Positions 24,050 through 31,849 of a stretch of DNA of 64,000 bases are shown one piece after another; position 1 is the stretch's first letter, and each line of letters begins with the position of its first letter. The notes beneath the pieces were generated by a model that was given only the letters and a program-made list of their open reading frames with translations, was not told the DNA's origin and made no database searches. The stretch comes from Laspinema palackyanum D2c (lineage in GTDB: Bacteria; Cyanobacteriota; Cyanobacteriia; Cyanobacteriales; Laspinemataceae): the NCBI RefSeq assembly GCF_025370875.1, contig NZ_JAMXFD010000022.1:1-64000 (forward strand), read 5' to 3'. Both the position numbers and the translations under genes were made by a program.

Positions 24050-24086
24050 TTCTTCATTAGGAGTGGCGATCGCCCCTACCGGAAAA

Positions 24087-24160
24087 GAATAACGACTGAA
24101 GTCGTTACTACAAACAATCAGAAAGAATTTTCCGATGTTCGTAGTAACGACTTCAGTCGT
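24087..24160. repeat. Facing pair of palindromic repeats
   Basis: One unit AACGACTGAAGTCGTTACTA and one inverted GTAGTAACGACTTCAGTCGT separated by about 35 bases, between the converging M16 and PLD-like genes. As a pair, the two could also form one larger stem. Confidence 0.85.
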
Positions 24161-24163
24161 TTC

Positions 24164-26098
24164 TTATCCCGACTTGTGAGGTTTAGATTTTTTCCGAGGA
24201 GAATTTTGAGTCGGCGGAAAAGTTGCCGCCAGTTTAGCTAGTTCCCCAGCAATAAAGGCATCTGGTGACTCGCCTGCCTCCGATGCAATCCCCAGGCGGA
24301 TGAAGTCTTGCCAGACGGGTTCGGAGAGTAAATTGAGAGCAAGGGTGCGATCGCCACTGGCAATAACAGCCATCACCTGCCGCCATGCTTCGCACAAGCT
24401 ATCCAGTTCCTGGGAATCCGGGGTGAGTTCAGATAGCTGGGAAAGCGCCTGATTCAAGCTAGGGGAATCCGGGGACATTTGCTGCGATCGCAAGCCCTGA
24501 CAAGCAATTTTTAGCCAAATCGGGAGCAATTCTAGCCACTCCCGGTCCTGAATCTGCTGTAAGGCAGTCTCTGCCATCCCCAACCCACCCCAGATACTTA
24601 GAGAGGTGGTGGCGAGGGATTCATCTTGAGTGGTAATTGCCTGCTGCCAGAGGGATTCGGCGCGTTGTTGAAATTGGGTAGAGAGAAACTGGTACGCTTC
24701 GCTGACGATTTCGGGAAGGGTGACTTGATAGACAGTTTCTCCCTGGGGTAGGCGATCGCCTCCATAAGTTAGCCAATTATGTGCGCTACAGATATAAGTT
24801 TGGCGATCGATGACAACTTCTTTGGCGTGAGACTGTTCCAACTCGACGACTTGTATAGCGGATAATCCTTCTGCTGTCTTTATCGCTGCTAATTTTGTCA
24901 GCCATTCGGGAGAAAGCTTACCCATGATATCTATATCTGTAGAGGCGATTCGCGAATCGCCCCTACAGTCGGAGGATTCCCCGGATCTATTTCCCTGTCC
25001 GATGAGAATCCAAACCCCGCGTTTGACGAGGGTTTCTAATCTTTGTAACAGGCGATTATCTATTCCTTTTTCTGTGAATATAGGCGAATAAATTAACACC
25101 TGATGCGTGGCAGTTTCGAGGGTTTCTAAAAATTGTTTCTGAATCTGATTCTCGGGGATTAAAATTGCACTGCCGGTTTCGGTGGGATTTTCTCCGCCAT
25201 TATCCCGATTAGGAGTTGCTGCTTGTCGGACTTGTTCCAGTCTAGCTTCAACTTCTGGATTCTGCGGTGGTAAACTTTCCTCACCATTGGTAGAACGGAT
25301 TGCAAACAACTCCGTTAGGGAAATTTTTCCCTCAGATTGAAGCATTTCTAGCCAAAGGGTGGCGGATTGTAGTAACTGTTCTCCGCGTCTAAATTGCAGG
25401 GTTAAGTGCTGATTTAGGGTATCAAAAATAGCAAACAGTGCCACGGATTGCCAACGGGTTTCGGGCGATTCAGCGATTTGGAAGGCGGTGACTTCTTTGC
25501 CAGATTCGGGACTGTGGAATCCCAATCCTTGATGGATGAGGCGTTGCTGGACATCGGTGAGGGTTAGGGAGTCTATCGGTTGAATGCGGCTGTTGAGGGG
25601 AAGAAAATCGCCTAAATTGGGGAGATTTAAAGCGGATTCGCGGAGAGGATTAACTTCAAAGGTAGTCGCCTCTAATAAAGGGTCAGCGATCGCATAGATA
25701 GGATGACTTTCTGGCGGTTGCGGGACGGACCCTTTTTCATAAAAAGCTCGCCCTTCTGGGGTGAGTTTAAGGGAACCGTCGGGGAGAACATTTAGGGTAT
25801 TTAATACCTTGAGATTGGCGGTGGTACTTCTAACAAAAATGGGGTCCAAACCCAAGACTTGGGCGAGTTCAACCTCGGTGGGTTTCGGGGTAATTTCTAA
25901 GCTGGCCCGGAGGATAAATTCTTCTAAAACATTGAATTTTCTGGGCGCAGTTACCATTAATTCTATGCCCGTTTGAAGCATAGCATAGCGGAATTGTCTA
26001 GCGGCAATTACCGATAAGCCCGGACTGGTTTTTTCGAGTTTTTCCACCGAGGTTTGCAGGGAGGAATCAATGGGTTTAGGGGAGGATTCGAGAAACAT
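24164..26098 (-). CDS. PLD-like nuclease-type protein with winged-helix region
   Basis: A 644-residue protein. The N-terminal 120 residues look like a winged-helix reader (EVELAQVLGLDPIFVRSTT, then KVLNTLNVLPDGSLKLTPEG). The centre contains a phospholipase D-like module: VLIYSPIFTEK (about 334-344), RGVWILIGQG, and an HxK motif in HAKEVVIDRQTYICSAHNW (about 424-442). Only one full HxK is clear, so a dimeric or degenerate active site is expected. The C-terminal 170 residues are helical. Its ATG lies inside the upstream helicase gene (23-base overlap), so the two are co-translated. Confidence 0.7.
   Translation of the reverse strand: MFLESSPKPIDSSLQTSVEKLEKTSPGLSVIAARQFRYAMLQTGIELMVTAPRKFNVLEEFILRASLEITPKPTEVELAQVLGLDPIFVRSTTANLKVLNTLNVLPDGSLKLTPEGRAFYEKGSVPQPPESHPIYAIADPLLEATTFEVNPLRESALNLPNLGDFLPLNSRIQPIDSLTLTDVQQRLIHQGLGFHSPESGKEVTAFQIAESPETRWQSVALFAIFDTLNQHLTLQFRRGEQLLQSATLWLEMLQSEGKISLTELFAIRSTNGEESLPPQNPEVEARLEQVRQAATPNRDNGGENPTETGSAILIPENQIQKQFLETLETATHQVLIYSPIFTEKGIDNRLLQRLETLVKRGVWILIGQGNRSGESSDCRGDSRIASTDIDIMGKLSPEWLTKLAAIKTAEGLSAIQVVELEQSHAKEVVIDRQTYICSAHNWLTYGGDRLPQGETVYQVTLPEIVSEAYQFLSTQFQQRAESLWQQAITTQDESLATTSLSIWGGLGMAETALQQIQDREWLELLPIWLKIACQGLRSQQMSPDSPSLNQALSQLSELTPDSQELDSLCEAWRQVMAVIASGDRTLALNLLSEPVWQDFIRLGIASEAGESPDAFIAGELAKLAATFPPTQNSPRKKSKPHKSG
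24937..24968. repeat. Palindromic repeat inside the PLD-like CDS
   Basis: A 32-base near-perfect palindrome (arms CTGTAGAGGCGATTCG and CGAATCGCCCCTACAG, one mismatch) lies in frame within the PLD-like gene and encodes CRGDSRIAST at about residues 379-388, between the core strand GVWILIGQG and the HxK motif. It resembles dispersed cyanobacterial palindromes normally found between genes. Confidence 0.75.
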
Positions 26099-29000
26099 CA
26101 ATTAGACCTCCTTGATGACGCACAACATTAGACACTTCTGAATAAATTCGCCCGACTTCCCCATGATGATGGGCGAATAATTCATGACAGCCAACGATAA
26201 CCAGCAATTCCCGGGCGCGAGAAAAGGCCACATTCACCCGTTCAGATTTTTTAGCAAATCCCACTTTTCCTTCGGAATTATTGCGAACCATGCTAACAAT
26301 AATTATGGACCTTTCCATCCCTTGAAATTGGTCAACAGTTCCGGTTCTAATTTGCAGAGAAGGGAAGCGGCTGTCATCCAAGATTCGTTCTTCAATCCGG
26401 TTGAGTTGGGCGCGATAAAAGGTGATGATACCAATTTCTTTGGGGGGATGACCCTGGGCGACTTTTTCGGCCCAAGTGGTTTCCATATCTTGACAAAGTT
26501 GCTCGATCGCCTCAATTTCTTTGGGATTAATAAAGGATGTCCCTTCTTTGCGTTCGCCAAAGGTGGAATCTTGGGGCATTTTCACCCAAATCAGGTGTTG
26601 ATGTGCCTGGATGATGGCACTATCCAGGTGATGTTTGCGGGCTTGATCCGGGTCTAAAATGCCGCATTGGAGACGGCGATCGTAAAATTGATTAATCGCC
26701 CCCATGATGTTGGGATGCATCCGATATTGAATCGTTAGCATGGTTTTGATAGACTCGGGGGCGGCATCAAATTGCAGTTTAAAGAAGGAGTCTTCTAAAA
26801 ATTGCAAGGCATCTTTACTGCTGCCCATTTCGATGGCAATATCTTCAATAGTATCATCATTCAGCATAGGCGGTAACTGACAGCGATCGCCGACTAAAAC
26901 TAACCGTTTAGCTTTGAGGGCGGGAATTAATAATTCCGGCGGTGTGCATTTGCTGACTTCATCGACAATCACCACATCAAATTTATTAAATTCTTCGGAA
27001 AAGTCTCGACGCGCCGCTTGGACACAGGTAATCCCAATTACATTGGCATTATCCAGATAAATTTGGCGTAATTCAGTGCGGTCCTGTTCCGAAGGATTAC
27101 GGAGTTTATCAATCCAATCTTGGACTAAGTTTTGATAGCGATTTAGATACTGTTCTTCCTGATTTCCCGCCTGTTCCCAGGTTTCAAACTGGGTTTTGAC
27201 TTGGTGTAAAAAAGGCAAATCACAGCAGTGGTTCTCGGCAATTTGCGGCAGGCGATCGCGTAGGGTTTCCCAGGTTTGCCGCCACCAATTGCGATGGTTG
27301 AGTAAGGGTTCTGGCAGATTGGTAGTCAGTTGTTGGGTAATTTCATGCAGTTCCAGTTCACACTGTTCTAGTTGCTGTTGCAGCGGTTGCAAATTTTGTT
27401 GTTGCTGGGTGAGATAGCTTTCAATTAGACCCTGAATATGACCTAAAACTTCAAAGGGGGCTAAGGCAGCAATTGCGTTTTCTAAGTTAGTAATTCGACT
27501 TTCCCAGGATTGCACCAGTGTCGCAAATTCTGAGGGTTTTTCCCAAATTAAAGCCCGGTTAGCTTGATATCGCTGGACGCCGGTTAAAATTGCCGGAGGA
27601 AGGTGAGGTTGTTGGCTTAATTTTTGTAACTGTTCTAACGCTTTTTGGAGAGTTTTTTCTCCTTCTTGACGCAATAAATTTAGGGCAGATTGTGATTGTT
27701 CAAGTTGCGGTTTTTGGGCGGCAATCCAATGCTGAATTTGATGCCACTGTTGCCCAATATGGCTTAATCCCTGTTCCGTTTCCGTTTTCAGCGGGAGTAA
27801 ACATTGGCGCGCCTGGGTGACAATTTCATCGATGCTAGTTTGGGCGATTTGTTGCAAAGTCAATTCGACTGACTGAACTTGCCACAAGGTGGCATACTGC
27901 TGTTGCTGCTGCTGTAAAATTTCCTGGGTTTTCACGACTAAATTCTGCCGTCCCGATGTCGTCAGTTGGGGATAATTGCCATATCCTGCCGCCAGTTCCC
28001 TCCATAAACTGCGATCGCCTGCTGAAAAGACAATCGGAGGCTGATTTAGACTGCGGTGCAAAAATTCATTAAAATAGGAATGATTGCCTTTGGTATTGCG
28101 AAAATTGCCCTTAGTTTCATAAGCTAAGGCTTTGAGAAATTGCTCCCAATTCGGCAGTTCCGTCACCGGATGATTGCCATAGTTGGGCATAATTGCCACA
28201 TTCAAGGTTTGGGCGATCGTCAGTAAACTATCGGGAACATGAATCAATTTACTGTTAAAGGGTTGACCCGTTTGGACCGCTTGTCTTAAAATGGTATAAA
28301 CTTGGGCAGGTGCTGTTTCTAACCAAACCCCAACCTCTTTAATCACGCGGTCAATTTCTAACTTACGAGTTTGTAAATTTTGAAAGCGTTGCTGGAGGGA
28401 TTTTTGCTTCGTTAAGGCTTGTTCATATTCCCCTTGCAGTTGCTGCAATGGAGTGGAATCTGCCCGAAATTGTTGGACGGCAGCAGCAGCAGCAGCGATC
28501 GCCTCAGCAGTGCGATTCGCTTCTGTGACAATTTCCCTAAATTTAGCCAACTCTGGCGCAACGGTTTCGCAACACCAAGCTGCCAACCCAAATGCACCGC
28601 GATCGGGACGAATCCATCCCAATTCTTGGGTTAAAGGTAATGCCACTCGCACTGCATCAATAAAAGTTTTAACCCTACTATCTTCCAAGGTATAAGGGCG
28701 AATTTCAGCCAATAACTTCACCACATCGGGAGATTCCCAGGGTACATTTGGCGCAGCAGCTAACAACGCTGCCAACTCCTCACTCACCCGTTTTACTTCG
28801 GGATTTTGCGCTTGTGCCGCCTGATACTGCTGTTCCCAAATTGCCCGATTTTCTAGTAAACTCTCCTGACGTTCTTTCCAAAACAGGCGATCGCTGGCGA
28901 GTGCTTCTTCCGCTGCCAAATACACCTCAAATTCCGCCGCTACCTTCCGCATTTGGTGATAAAATACTAAATCATTGCGCCGTTTTTCCAAATCCGTCTC

Positions 29001-31079
29001 ACAGTGACTCGCCGTATTTTGCAGCCAAGTCCCGATCGCATTCTCTTCTAAATAAGGCGCACCTTCTTCCTGTACCTTCTCCGCTTTTCCCTTTCGCAAC
29101 GCTCGAATCACGGGACTATGCACCAATCGACTCAAAGCATTATCCACCGCTAAATTGGCTTGAGATGCGATTAAAGTCCGTCCCCCTCGGCGCGCCACCT
29201 GGTAGCAAATTTCCGCAATTACTGTGGTTTTTCCCGTCCCCGGAGGACCTTGAATTAAGACTAAATCTTTGGCAGATAACACCATTTCCACGGCGGCAAT
29301 TTGGTCCGGATTGGCAGCGGGTAATAGTAACTCCGCCCTCTCCAGTTTAACCGAGTTTTTCGGAACCCTTGCCTGTCCCGCATCAAAGAAAAATTGGCCT
29401 AAAAAGGGATTCTGACTATGACCCTGTTCCAGCCGTTTTAAGGCGTTCATTTTATGAGTGATTTGACTCAGTTCCCCAAAGGCTTCAAACAATAAATATC
29501 CGCTTTCGGGTAACTGATAATAACCCCCTGCCATCAACTCTAGCAAATCAGAATCCGGCTTAATTCTCAGCAACCGCCGTTCAGTATCCACCGAGTCAAT
29601 TCGCCCTAAAATTCGTCCATCCCGGCCATTTTTTCCCAGGGGAGAACTTTCAAATAGGCGAAGCTGTTCGCTGCGGGCTTTATAAGTGCGACTCCAGAAT
29701 TCCCCTGCGGCTAATTCGGTTTCGCTGCTGCCGTCAATGGTTGCCTCACGACTGTCCAATTCAAAGCTAATCCGGCGCGCATCCGCCCCATAATTATGAC
29801 CGATAAACGGTACACAAAACTGCCGTGATTCCGCAATCCGTCGTTCAATTTCTACATAAACTCGCCATGCCTGAAGTTGTTCCTCAGTGGGAATTAAATC
29901 TCCAGAAACCGGCAGTTTTGCCATGCGTTTTAAGGCGGAACGAGGAACGCCTAAATCATACTGATGATCCGGCAGCAACCGCAGACGACAGAGGACCGTA
30001 AACCCATCCCCGCGTCCCCGAGTTTGGGGAACAAAAGTCACATCAATTAAACGTAATCCACCCCGTCCATCGGGACTGACTACAGCCTTTAAAGATAAGG
30101 TTTTGTAGCGCTTTTCTAACAGAGGAATTCCCGGTTCATCCCGATCGCAAGCAAGGGTAAGTTGCCACCGTTCCTCTCCCGCATCTTTCCCCGACCCCAG
30201 ACGGCGCAAGTAAAAAGAGTGCGATCGCTGTTCTAACAGTTGTGCGAATAACAGTTCCGCCCGATCGCGACGACTGCGAAAATCCTCATCGCGATCGCTG
30301 GGTTTCTCCCCTGCCAGTTCCCGAATCACATTGGCGATCGCTGTTTTGCCAACGAACCGATACCCCCACTTTGCCTCCTCCTGCTTGGCAGCAGATTTCT
30401 CCGAGGGTACTACCGTCGTCACCCACTCCACCCGACTGATAATCTCCGCAGTAACCTGAATCTCGCGCTTGTCCCCCTCGGAACATAAATATACCGACCC
30501 TGACAACCGAGTTCCTGCGGGGATTCCCTGGGAATTCACCGCCATCTGTAGCGACTGTAACCCCGGGGACAAATACTGCGATCGCACTTGCAACCAATCC
30601 AAGTCCGACACCACCTGACAAGACTCACCCAGTTGCAGTTCCCAACCCTTTTCTACCTGGCGATTCGGTTCAATCTCCCCAAACTCCAATCGCCCTGGAA
30701 CCGCCCAAATTGCGCCTTCCCACTGGACATTTTCCGCGCTTCCCGTCAATCTCACCTGATGCAAAATCGGCGCGGTATTTGCCTCACCCCTTATCGCTAC
30801 AGCACCCGTTTCACCCCCAACAGTTCGGGCGATCGCCAAATTCTCCAAGCGCACTCCGGCAACCGTCACCACCACCGCAGGCGCATCCACCGCAAACAGC
30901 ACAGAATCACCGCCACTCCCGCGAATCGTCACTGCACGCGCGATCGTGAAGGTTCCCTTGTAATCTCCCGGTTTTAAGGAGATTTCATATCCATCCCGGA
31001 CAATTTCCAGTAATTCAACAAAATTGGTGGGATCTGCTTCAATCGACGGCACAATCACTCCTGACTCATAGTGCGGCAT
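26076..31079 (-). CDS. Giant SF1 (Upf1/SMUBP2-like) helicase with beta-helix N-terminus
   Basis: A 1,667-residue protein. Residues about 10-125 resemble right-handed beta-helix repeats (KPGDYKGTFTIARAVTIRG, GVRLENLAIA). Residues about 130-215 resemble a beta-sandwich. From about 580 it is an SF1 helicase: Q-type NPDQ, Walker A QGPPGTGKTTV (610-620), then an insertion of about 750 residues rich in Gln/Glu coiled coil, Walker B VVIVDEVSKCTPPE (1369), GDRCQLPP, QYRMHP, and the C-terminal TVDQFQGMERSIIIVS (1581) and RVNVAFSRAR. No signal peptide is seen. It is the first gene of a two-gene operon with the PLD-like protein, suggesting nucleic-acid surveillance or defence. The upstream gene is unrelated. 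Confidence 0.85.
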   Translation of the reverse strand: MPHYESGVIVPSIEADPTNFVELLEIVRDGYEISLKPGDYKGTFTIARAVTIRGSGGDSVLFAVDAPAVVVTVAGVRLENLAIARTVGGETGAVAIRGEANTAPILHQVRLTGSAENVQWEGAIWAVPGRLEFGEIEPNRQVEKGWELQLGESCQVVSDLDWLQVRSQYLSPGLQSLQMAVNSQGIPAGTRLSGSVYLCSEGDKREIQVTAEIISRVEWVTTVVPSEKSAAKQEEAKWGYRFVGKTAIANVIRELAGEKPSDRDEDFRSRRDRAELLFAQLLEQRSHSFYLRRLGSGKDAGEERWQLTLACDRDEPGIPLLEKRYKTLSLKAVVSPDGRGGLRLIDVTFVPQTRGRGDGFTVLCRLRLLPDHQYDLGVPRSALKRMAKLPVSGDLIPTEEQLQAWRVYVEIERRIAESRQFCVPFIGHNYGADARRISFELDSREATIDGSSETELAAGEFWSRTYKARSEQLRLFESSPLGKNGRDGRILGRIDSVDTERRLLRIKPDSDLLELMAGGYYQLPESGYLLFEAFGELSQITHKMNALKRLEQGHSQNPFLGQFFFDAGQARVPKNSVKLERAELLLPAANPDQIAAVEMVLSAKDLVLIQGPPGTGKTTVIAEICYQVARRGGRTLIASQANLAVDNALSRLVHSPVIRALRKGKAEKVQEEGAPYLEENAIGTWLQNTASHCETDLEKRRNDLVFYHQMRKVAAEFEVYLAAEEALASDRLFWKERQESLLENRAIWEQQYQAAQAQNPEVKRVSEELAALLAAAPNVPWESPDVVKLLAEIRPYTLEDSRVKTFIDAVRVALPLTQELGWIRPDRGAFGLAAWCCETVAPELAKFREIVTEANRTAEAIAAAAAAVQQFRADSTPLQQLQGEYEQALTKQKSLQQRFQNLQTRKLEIDRVIKEVGVWLETAPAQVYTILRQAVQTGQPFNSKLIHVPDSLLTIAQTLNVAIMPNYGNHPVTELPNWEQFLKALAYETKGNFRNTKGNHSYFNEFLHRSLNQPPIVFSAGDRSLWRELAAGYGNYPQLTTSGRQNLVVKTQEILQQQQQQYATLWQVQSVELTLQQIAQTSIDEIVTQARQCLLPLKTETEQGLSHIGQQWHQIQHWIAAQKPQLEQSQSALNLLRQEGEKTLQKALEQLQKLSQQPHLPPAILTGVQRYQANRALIWEKPSEFATLVQSWESRITNLENAIAALAPFEVLGHIQGLIESYLTQQQQNLQPLQQQLEQCELELHEITQQLTTNLPEPLLNHRNWWRQTWETLRDRLPQIAENHCCDLPFLHQVKTQFETWEQAGNQEEQYLNRYQNLVQDWIDKLRNPSEQDRTELRQIYLDNANVIGITCVQAARRDFSEEFNKFDVVIVDEVSKCTPPELLIPALKAKRLVLVGDRCQLPPMLNDDTIEDIAIEMGSSKDALQFLEDSFFKLQFDAAPESIKTMLTIQYRMHPNIMGAINQFYDRRLQCGILDPDQARKHHLDSAIIQAHQHLIWVKMPQDSTFGERKEGTSFINPKEIEAIEQLCQDMETTWAEKVAQGHPPKEIGIITFYRAQLNRIEERILDDSRFPSLQIRTGTVDQFQGMERSIIIVSMVRNNSEGKVGFAKKSERVNVAFSRARELLVIVGCHELFAHHHGEVGRIYSEVSNVVRHQGGLIDVSRILP

Positions 31080-31215: not shown

Positions 31216-31728
31216 TCAATCCGTGATTTTTCCTTCTATTCTGACCTGATTTTCTTCATTCTGATCGCTGCTATCATCCGCCGTTACTTCCAACTTTTGA
31301 GCCAAAATTTCTAAGCGGTGGTGTTCTTTTTTTAGTTTTTCTTCTAACTCTTGAAGTTGGTCTCTGCGCGCTTCTAATTCTAGGGCTCGACGGGAGAGTT
31401 CCTGACTTTGTAAAGTCAAAGATTGCCGCCATTGTTCAATCTCATCCGCCTGTTCCTGTAAAAAATCCGGCGTCAATCCTTTGGTCAAATATTGTTGAAC
31501 CAGATTAATCGCCCATTCCGTCGCCTCATTGATCGTGCGAATTTGTCCCCCAGTGGTAATATCCGCTAAAACCAGAATTCCCTCGCCAAAGGCATTGGCT
31601 TCTGTGGTGACAATTGGCTCAGTTTCTGACACCAAAGCCCAGATATCTCCAGATTTCTGACAGGCGAGTAGTCGTAACCCTGTTTTGCCTAAGAATCCTT
31701 TTTTTTGCACCTGAGCTAAGTATATCAT
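31216..31728 (-). CDS. Conserved cyanobacterial coiled-coil protein
   Basis: A 170-residue protein starting MIYLAQVQKKGFLGKTGLRL, a pattern I recognise from conserved cyanobacterial hypothetical proteins. A globular N-terminal half (to about 85) is followed by EWAINLVQQYLTKGLTP and a long coiled coil (about 110-160, ELSRRALELEARRDQLQELE). Function is unknown. The frame is open 34 codons further upstream, but ATG 31728 fits the conserved start. It is 121 bases beyond the valS stop on the same strand and could be co-transcribed with it. Confidence 0.65.
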   Translation of the reverse strand: MIYLAQVQKKGFLGKTGLRLLACQKSGDIWALVSETEPIVTTEANAFGEGILVLADITTGGQIRTINEATEWAINLVQQYLTKGLTPDFLQEQADEIEQWRQSLTLQSQELSRRALELEARRDQLQELEEKLKKEHHRLEILAQKLEVTADDSSDQNEENQVRIEGKITD

Positions 31729-31849
31729 TGCAGTCTGCTTCAAAAGGTGATGGATTGGAATGGGCGAGAATTGTCGGTTTCCGGTCCCATTCTCAATGAG
31801 AGAGAGGACCGGAGGCAGATTTATCTTCAACAGTTAGGGGGTTTCGGGA

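What the first reader, a model, noticed from the sequence alone, without database searches (positions are those of the whole stretch)
24164..31079. Two-gene helicase plus PLD operon: candidate new defence system
Seen: a 1,667-residue SF1 helicase with all motifs overlaps by 23 bases a 644-residue protein with a PLD-type HxK motif and a winged-helix-like start. Known: pairing of an Upf1-like SF1 helicase with a PLD nuclease occurs in Mokosh-type anti-phage systems, and PLD proteins also occur in DISARM. Unusual here: the helicase has an N-terminal beta-helix plus beta-sandwich region (about 1-215) and a 750-residue coiled-coil insertion between Walker A and B. Neither is a feature I know from those systems. 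The HEPN-like gene about 4 kb further on, beyond valS, fits a defence neighbourhood.
Basis: partly seen in the sequence, partly recalled or inferred. Interest (0 to 1): 0.75.

Follow-up and report, generated by a model that had tools for sequence, protein, structure and literature searches.

The report
Cyanobacterial helicase with swappable nuclease partner
Two overlapping genes encode a giant UPF1-like helicase and a partner with a phospholipase-D-type nuclease domain, a long-resident cyanobacterial variant of the helicase-plus-effector modules found in Mokosh and CoCoNuT antiviral systems.

Summary
In detail: a 1,667-aa UPF1-like SF1 helicase overlaps by 23 bp a 644-aa protein with a winged-helix-like start and a PLD (HKD) domain. 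The pair belongs to the known UPF1-like helicase plus 'elongated wHTH + effector' superfamily (Mokosh MkoA/MkoB, CoCoNuT CnuH/CnuE). It is neither kinase-type Mokosh I (no kinase found; MkoA model hits are not diagnostic) nor CoCoNuT (no CnuB/CnuC among nine neighbours scanned). A coiled-coil insertion after Walker A is already published for CnuH, so that part is not new. What looks new: the insertion carries a domain homologous to the N-terminus of the cell's own RecG (profile E 6e-33); N-termini are swapped among relatives (beta-helix-like, IF2_N, none); the partner's effector is PLD, DarT or absent. Three intact DarT-linked helicases form a clade; two sit in BREX operons. Yet most named copies are chromosomal residents in conserved ordinary neighbourhoods, under purifying selection in the window's genus, with repeated PLD loss while helicase motifs stay intact. 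Best reading: a modular immune helicase-effector device, long resident and possibly partly domesticated in filamentous cyanobacteria. Nothing was tested at the bench.

The parts
26076..31079 (-). UPF1-like SF1 helicase gene, 1,667 aa
24164..26098 (-). Partner gene, 644 aa: wHTH-like adaptor + PLD nuclease domain + C-terminal helical region
26076..26098 (-). 23-bp overlap of the two reading frames
30390..31079 (-). Helicase residues 1-230: beta-helix-like part (about 20-113) followed by a possible Ig-like part; present only in one subset of relatives
   Evidence: NosD-family hits; weak PapD-like E 0.11; low-confidence model; distribution
29010..30389 (-). Helicase residues 231-690: first half of the core with Walker A
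   Evidence: PADLOC MkoA E 1e-29
29226..29249 (-). Walker A (GPPGTGKT), residues 611-618
27615..29063 (-). Coiled-coil insertion, residues about 673-1155
   Evidence: Long helices 673-743, 829-937, 1068-1155; no PADLOC family for residues 691-1190
27846..28172 (-). RecG N-terminal-like domain, residues 970-1078, between two long coiled-coil helices
   Evidence: NCBIfam RecG NF008170 E 4e-15; hhalign 6e-33; HMM of seven host-type RecGs 4.5e-28
26079..27389 (-). Helicase residues 1231-1667: Walker B and second RecA domain
   Evidence: PADLOC MkoA E 9e-83 on residues 1191-1667; Walker B
25307..26098 (-). Partner residues 1-264: wHTH-like adaptor shared with PLD, DarT and effector-less partners
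24704..25168 (-). PLD domain, residues 311-465
24776..24829 (-). HKD catalytic motif, residues 424-441

Best explanation
A two-gene immune module without McrBC, of the UPF1-like helicase plus wHTH-effector superfamily. Shown by sequence or model: an SF1 helicase with intact motifs and a coiled-coil insertion that bears a RecG-N-like domain, and a partner with a wHTH-like adaptor and an intact HKD nuclease domain. Inferred: the helicase loads on an abnormal nucleic acid (the RecG-N domain and the DarT version point to branched or single-stranded DNA; RNA or R-loops are not excluded); the partner's adaptor docks on the coiled-coil insertion, as proposed for CnuH/CnuE; ATP-driven movement releases or feeds the effector, here PLD cleavage. 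The swappable helicase N-terminus tunes what is sensed. The locus is an old chromosomal resident in this genus, and related lineages keep helicase and adaptor after losing the nuclease.
For: Homology to MkoA/MkoB and of the adaptor to kinase-type Mokosh MkoB (best E 2e-10 and 6e-9 in a set of 16 proteins) and, weakly, to a CoCoNuT CnuE (E 0.007). The effector is swappable: PLD, DarT (four adaptor-DarT proteins, Pfam 9e-16 to 6e-21) or none. The DarT forms L082 and L173 sit between pglX and pglZ/brxL of BREX operons, each followed by an ADP-ribosylglycohydrolase gene. One plasmid copy (L084) lies beside hsdR, toxin-antitoxin genes and, further on, a DrmD-like gene. Helicase motifs I-III are intact in 58 of 58 relatives and IV-VI in 57 each; catalytic H/K/D in 60-64 of 64 partners. 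N-terminus type changes at least 5 times and effector type at least 5 times on the helicase tree. Both genes are under purifying selection in the genus (omega 0.06-0.27 by segment, the linker 0.88).
Against: No bench data. The window copy and most named relatives sit among ordinary chromosomal genes and are vertically stable. The other plasmid copy (L083) has no named defence gene beside it. In 21 of 58 loci the nearest partner frame begins more than 300 bp after the helicase, so the operon is not always tight. In one family sample 44 of 88 partner frames are under 500 aa and mostly too short for the PLD domain (33 at 370 aa or less, 11 at 390-480 aa, the latter including DarT forms and a split gene). 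No relatives in phage records or viral contigs. The DarT and plasmid forms lack the RecG-N domain that the window form has.
Confidence: 0.55

Rival explanations
1. Domesticated genome or RNA maintenance helicase: an immune-derived helicase, now a host factor at replication forks, R-loops or RNA, recruited through its RecG-N-like domain; the PLD protein is a processing nuclease that several lineages have dropped.
For: RecG-N domain homologous to the host's own RecG, found in 55 of 71 helicases of this family and absent from all five plasmid or DarT copies tested (L082, L083, L084, L173, L175); conserved ordinary synteny; 7 of 8 genomes of the genus; repeated PLD loss with intact helicase motifs.
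Against: Only 81 of 145 genomes of one family and 32 of 292 of the phylum sample carry the adaptor; the RecG-N domain is also missing from eight named copies of a Microcoleaceae/Argonema-type subgroup, from L172 and from a tandem paralogue, so it does not follow residency strictly; effector swapping and BREX kin; the PLD motif is kept in most full-length partners.
Confidence: 0.3
2. A plain member of type I Mokosh working as MkoA/MkoB do.
For: PADLOC MkoA 383.6 bits and MkoB 93.1 bits; helicase + PLD gene order.
Against: No Ser/Thr kinase domain among the 25 of 31 Pfam matches listed for the whole protein, and none in residues 1-230 by Pfam or PADLOC; a kinase-type MkoA scores 718.6 bits over nearly the whole model; the same model gives 264-357 bits to a CoCoNuT, a PIN-linked and two other helicases, so it does not discriminate; the helicase tree separates this family from five kinase-type MkoA (long branches).
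Confidence: 0.1
3. A decayed or partial CoCoNuT (McrBC-type) locus.
For: CnuH has a helical/coiled-coil insertion after Walker A and CnuE is an elongated wHTH + effector (PMC11090510).
Against: No McrB-like GTPase or DUF2357 protein among the nine neighbouring ORFs scanned; conserved neighbours of relatives are histone-deacetylase-, GCS2-, SpoU-methylase- and M23-peptidase-type genes; the CnuH of L185 has the longest branch in the tree.
Confidence: 0.03

Closest known systems
Mokosh type I (MkoA + MkoB)
   Same: UPF1-like SF1 helicase followed by a wHTH + PLD protein; significant homology of both proteins.
   Different: No Ser/Thr kinase found; extra coiled-coil insertion (Walker A to B 759 aa against 264-277 in five kinase-type MkoA); RecG-N-like domain; different N-terminus; separate group in the tree.
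CoCoNuT cnuH-cnuE (Type II/III)
   Same: Helical coiled-coil insertion after Walker A; downstream elongated wHTH + variable effector; [quoted passage not shown]
   Different: No CnuB/CnuC seen beside it; single HKD motif in the partner, whereas the paper gives Type III-C CnuE two PLD domains; RecG-N-like domain; beta-helix-like or IF2_N start.
PIN-linked UPF1-like helicase cassettes on plasmids (L087, L170, L171, L186, L188)
   Same: Next to this family in the midpoint-rooted helicase tree (the root is not inferred); Walker A to B distance 392-516 aa in the four where it was found; adaptor similarity in the Acinetobacter one (E 2e-7).
   Different: PIN effector and further genes (AAA ATPase, 4Fe-4S protein); proteobacterial.
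Cyanobacterial RecG
   Same: 93 aligned columns of its N-terminal domain (hhalign probability 99.9, E 6e-33).
   Different: Only that domain is shared; RecG has DEAD/Helicase_C and wedge domains instead.

Membership tests
UPF1-like helicase + elongated wHTH-effector superfamily (CnuH/CnuE-like, as described in PMC11090510) | UPF1-like SF1 helicase with helical insertion after Walker A | tested here: met
   (IGHMBP2-family TIGR00376 215.7 bits, below its curated cutoff of 348.9)
UPF1-like helicase + elongated wHTH-effector superfamily (CnuH/CnuE-like, as described in PMC11090510) | Downstream gene with wHTH adaptor fused to an effector | tested here: met
   Adaptor profile matches kinase-type MkoB E 2e-10 and 6e-9, CnuE only E 0.007, in a set of 16 proteins; TrmBL2 (wHTH protein) and PLD folds among the matches of the model
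UPF1-like helicase + elongated wHTH-effector superfamily (CnuH/CnuE-like, as described in PMC11090510) | Adaptor docks on the helicase insertion | not testable with these tools
   No complex modelling available; taken from PMC11090510
Mokosh type I | Helicase carries a Ser/Thr kinase domain (recalled; the Mokosh-like plasmid loci L086, L166-L169 are annotated so) | tested here: not met
   no kinase family in residues 1-230 or among the 25 of 31 families listed for the whole protein
Mokosh type I | Neighbouring PLD nuclease protein (MkoB) | tested here: met
   (MkoB E 6e-27)
Mokosh type I | Helicase falls among kinase-type MkoA in a tree | tested here: not met
   33 sequences, five kinase-type MkoA; unrooted, long branches
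CoCoNuT | NxD McrB-like GTPase (CnuB) and DUF2357 protein (CnuC) in the operon | tested here: not met
   nine neighbouring ORFs between 20135 and 41030 scanned (small and overlapping ORFs not), none matches
DISARM | DrmA/DrmB core genes | tested here: inconclusive
   DrmC-like match of the partner is only E 0.013; no Drm gene among three neighbours scanned with PADLOC, but most of the window was not scanned
Anti-phage activity | Protects cells from phage | not testable with these tools
   needs a bench test

The most novel reading that the evidence does not exclude
An immune UPF1-like helicase captured a copy of the host's own RecG N-terminal domain, carried between the long helices of its coiled-coil insertion. 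It thereby became a chromosomally resident device of filamentous cyanobacteria that surveys the places where RecG works (stalled forks, R-loops) and delivers a swappable effector there: PLD in this window, lost in many Nostoc and Microcoleus relatives, replaced by DarT in forms that joined BREX. It would be a case of an antiviral helicase partly domesticated into genome surveillance, with a shared docking domain as the link.
Probability: 0.2. Interest if true: 0.75.

Novelty: new variant of a known kind. Interest (0 to 1): 0.5.

Why it matters
It shows that one helicase-adaptor chassis has been fitted with different N-terminal domains and different effectors (PLD, DarT, none) within one group of bacteria, and that it shares a domain with the host's RecG. 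That makes two questions directly testable: what these UPF1-like immune helicases recognise, and how an immune system becomes a long-term chromosomal resident. It also warns that MkoA model hits alone do not identify Mokosh.

Tried and rejected
Kinase-type Mokosh: rejected as a filing, because no kinase domain was found and the MkoA model is not diagnostic. CoCoNuT: rejected for lack of CnuB/CnuC among the scanned neighbours. Defence island around the window: not seen; the nine scanned neighbours are two M16 peptidases, a TetR regulator, a HmpF-like fragment, valS, a DUF4351 protein, a FAD enzyme and two proteins without a family. Novelty of the coiled-coil insertion as such: rejected (PMC11090510). 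Structure search with helicase residues 1-1200 gave only generic coiled-coil proteins at the top and no match at E 1e-3 or better; that model has pTM 0.34 and does not confirm the beta-helix. Pfam on the N-terminus of 20 relatives gave nothing convincing. A profile of host-type RecG N-domains found no solved relative better than E 0.97. Viral contigs and phage records: no relatives of the adaptor or partner. Literature searches for PLuB, for CnuH/CnuE with Mokosh, and for a cyanobacterial RecG N-domain listed no description of this variant that I recognised (also 8, 20, 56, 57; mostly listings seen); the library holds open-licence papers only.

Limits of the counts. The order-wide helicase search counts 192 of 291 genomes, but many of those are general SF1 helicases or the RecG domain alone, so I do not use it as a count of this system. 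The order-wide partner search counts 73 of 291 and includes a few matches to the PLD part alone. The 78 named loci are the best 80 of 157 and lean to Nostoc kin. How many of the 292 genomes of the phylum sample lie outside the window's order is not shown. The class counts use 58 helicases; helicases cut by contig ends, of 1,100 aa or less, or without a partner frame in the locus were dropped. In one search the presence of the RecG domain was set by hand and agrees with the recount; L095 was left undetermined there; the tree is of the 'quick' kind with warnings about long branches. In one search the 88 ORF lengths were typed in; they include second copies, a split gene and DarT forms. Group codes (f33, f2) were read as Nostoc-type and Microcoleus-type from equal contig lengths, an inference.

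Full report
Observation. Both genes lie on the minus strand: helicase 26076-31079 (1,667 aa) and partner 24164-26098 (644 aa), sharing 23 bp. Pfam finds AAA_11/AAA_12 in the helicase and a sub-threshold PLDc_2 match (E 5e-5) in the partner. The partner model is confident (mean pLDDT 85.2, pTM 0.70). Its top PDB matches are PLD-family proteins (NucT 6ehi E 4e-5; Zucchini further down, E 4.5e-3), and the wHTH protein TrmBL2 is among the first ten (E 3e-4). The HKD residues among 64 aligned partners: H 62, K 60, D 64, N 49. The region is therefore a real PLD domain with its motif intact.

Anatomy of the helicase. PADLOC models match the two halves of the core (MkoA E 1e-29 and 9e-83) but neither residues 1-230 nor 691-1190. 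Walker A and Walker B are 759 residues apart, against 264-277 in five kinase-type MkoA, 329 in a CoCoNuT CnuH, 501-516 in three PIN-linked helicases and 392 in a fourth (the pattern found no Walker B in a fifth). The model of residues 1-1200 (mean pLDDT 70, pTM 0.34) shows very long helices (673-743, 829-937, 1068-1155) with a small helical domain between the last two; local confidence is good from about residue 800 on and moderate before. That domain, residues 970-1078, is homologous to the N-terminus of cyanobacterial RecG: NCBIfam RecG NF008170 E 4e-15, profile-profile E 6e-33 with probability 99.9, and an HMM of seven RecG proteins alone E 4.5e-28. The window's own genome holds such a RecG (1,312 bits to NF008170). 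Residues 1-230 look like a short beta-helix followed by an Ig-like part. The support is weak: NosD-family hits at E 0.0016 and 0.058 and low model confidence.

Relatives. The partner's N-terminal adaptor was used as a profile. In genome contigs 157 stretches encode a relative; the best 80, 78 loci, were kept, and their titles are all cyanobacterial. The nearest are Laspinema, Oscillatoria sp. HE19RPO and Phormidium pseudopriestleyi. No viral contig and no phage record holds a relative. In the phylum sample 32 of 292 genomes have it, all 32 in the window's order, but how many sampled genomes lie outside that order is not shown. In one family of the order (f33, Nostoc-type by contig-length matches) 81 of 145 have it; in the window's genus 7 of 8 have both genes, the eighth being 87% complete.

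Domain swapping. Among 58 helicases with a partner frame in the same locus, N-terminus and partner combine as IF2_N+PLD 29, beta-helix+PLD 15, none+PLD 6, none+short partner 5, IF2_N+short partner 3 (IF2_N was checked by Pfam on one relative outside this set, E 8e-11). The partner frame overlaps the helicase in 31, starts within 300 bp in 6 and further off in 21. Helicase motifs I-III are found in all 58 and motifs IV-VI in 57 each, all 8 with a PLD-less partner included. In Nostoc sp. C052 the partner is the adaptor fused to DarT (Pfam E 9e-16), followed by an ADP-ribosylglycohydrolase gene (E 4e-42), and the trio sits on a conjugative plasmid inside a BREX operon between pglX and pglZ/brxL. 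Two more adaptor-DarT proteins occur elsewhere (L175, and L174 with a broken helicase). On the helicase tree of 76 rows the three intact DarT-linked helicases form one clade; N-terminus type needs at least 5 changes, effector type at least 5 and the RecG domain at least 3 (quick tree, long branches flagged).

Residence. In 52 of 78 named loci at least one of a histone-deacetylase-type, a GCS2-type and a SpoU-methylase-type gene lies in the flanks; in the five Laspinema-type loci valS and the small HmpF-like gene do; 21 loci, several on short contigs, show none of the eight test genes (Pfam names). Within the window's genus the segments are under purifying selection (omega 0.06 to 0.27, PLD 0.26, linker 0.88; six genomes; valS 0.06 in five). 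In the family sample 44 of 88 partner frames are 530 aa or longer, 11 are 390-480 aa and 33 are 370 aa or less (lengths). The RecG domain is found in 55 of 71 helicases of this family. It is missing from the plasmid and DarT copies (L082, L083, L084, L173, L175), from L172, from eight named copies of a Microcoleaceae/Argonema-type subgroup, from one tandem paralogue and from a damaged copy, L095.

What it is. The CoCoNuT paper (PMC11090510; section 9 read in full, passages elsewhere; [quoted passage not shown] The window pair fits this superfamily. In a set of 16 partner proteins the adaptor profile matches the MkoB of kinase-type Mokosh (E 2e-10, 6e-9, 1e-5, 1e-3 and 8e-3 in five), a PIN-effector protein (2e-7; three further PIN proteins 3e-4 to 4e-3) and, weakly, CnuE (0.007); three others gave no match. 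The PADLOC MkoA model scores 264-357 bits on a CoCoNuT, a PIN-linked, a DarT-linked and an Aliarcobacter helicase, against 384 bits here and 719 for a kinase-type MkoA, so the Mokosh name does not follow from it. In a 33-sequence tree the helicases of this family are one side of a branch (support 100), next to the PIN-linked ones and apart from kinase-type MkoA and CnuH (unrooted, long branches).

How it works. Shown: helicase and nuclease motifs, the fold of the partner, homology of the RecG domain, swapping of ends. Inferred: recognition of abnormal DNA or RNA, docking, effector release. DarT acts on ssDNA and RecG works at forks and R-loops (both established knowledge, recalled), which leans towards DNA; PMC11291487 (passages) says that Mokosh degrades viral transcripts, so RNA stays open. 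Against defence: ordinary neighbourhood, vertical stability, PLD loss, loose spacing in a third of loci. For defence: BREX kin, effector swapping, homology to defence proteins.

Literature seen: PMC11090510 (section 9 in full, passages elsewhere); PMC11291487, PMC12278908 and PMC10952713 (passages); PMC12839542 (passages, reference list only). The original Mokosh paper (Millman 2022) is recalled, not seen.

Noticed in passing
window 24080-24170; whole genome G000: An inverted repeat built on AACGACTGAAGTCGTTACTAC lies between the PLD gene and the convergent M16 gene; the 21-mer occurs 274 + 290 times in the genome and its reversed control 0 times: an abundant, often clustered interspersed repeat.
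   Followed up: partly
   Followed up: partly
window 31216-31830 (-): 204-aa HmpF-like fragment (NCBIfam HmpF E 1e-34 over 165 of 553 positions), found beside valS in the five named Laspinema-type loci.
   Followed up: partly
   Followed up: partly
L187:4744-13042 (Hymenobacter plasmid): UPF1-like helicase followed by a 1,691-aa protein with DarT near its C-terminus (Pfam E 7e-11).
   Followed up: no
L087, L170, L171, L186, L188: Recurring plasmid cassette: UPF1-like helicase, PIN-domain protein, hypothetical protein, AAA ATPase and (in three of the five stretches fetched) a 4Fe-4S protein; the helicases are next to this family in the tree.
   Followed up: partly
L063 and L064 (Oscillatoria-type genomes): Two helicase-partner pairs in tandem; one helicase has the RecG domain and a longer insertion, the other lacks the domain (for L063).
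   Followed up: partly
L195:3177-6629 (window's own genome, contig C21): 1,150-aa protein with SMC-like coiled coil, a PLD-like stretch and TPR repeats; similar PLD matches in frames of about 1,170 aa occur in other genomes of the genus.
   Followed up: no
L178 and L183; L142, L150, L155, L156: Nostoc-type loci where the partner remains but no helicase frame was seen in the stretch (L178, L183), and Rhizonema/Scytonema partners that keep adaptor and C-terminal part without a PLD match.
   Followed up: no
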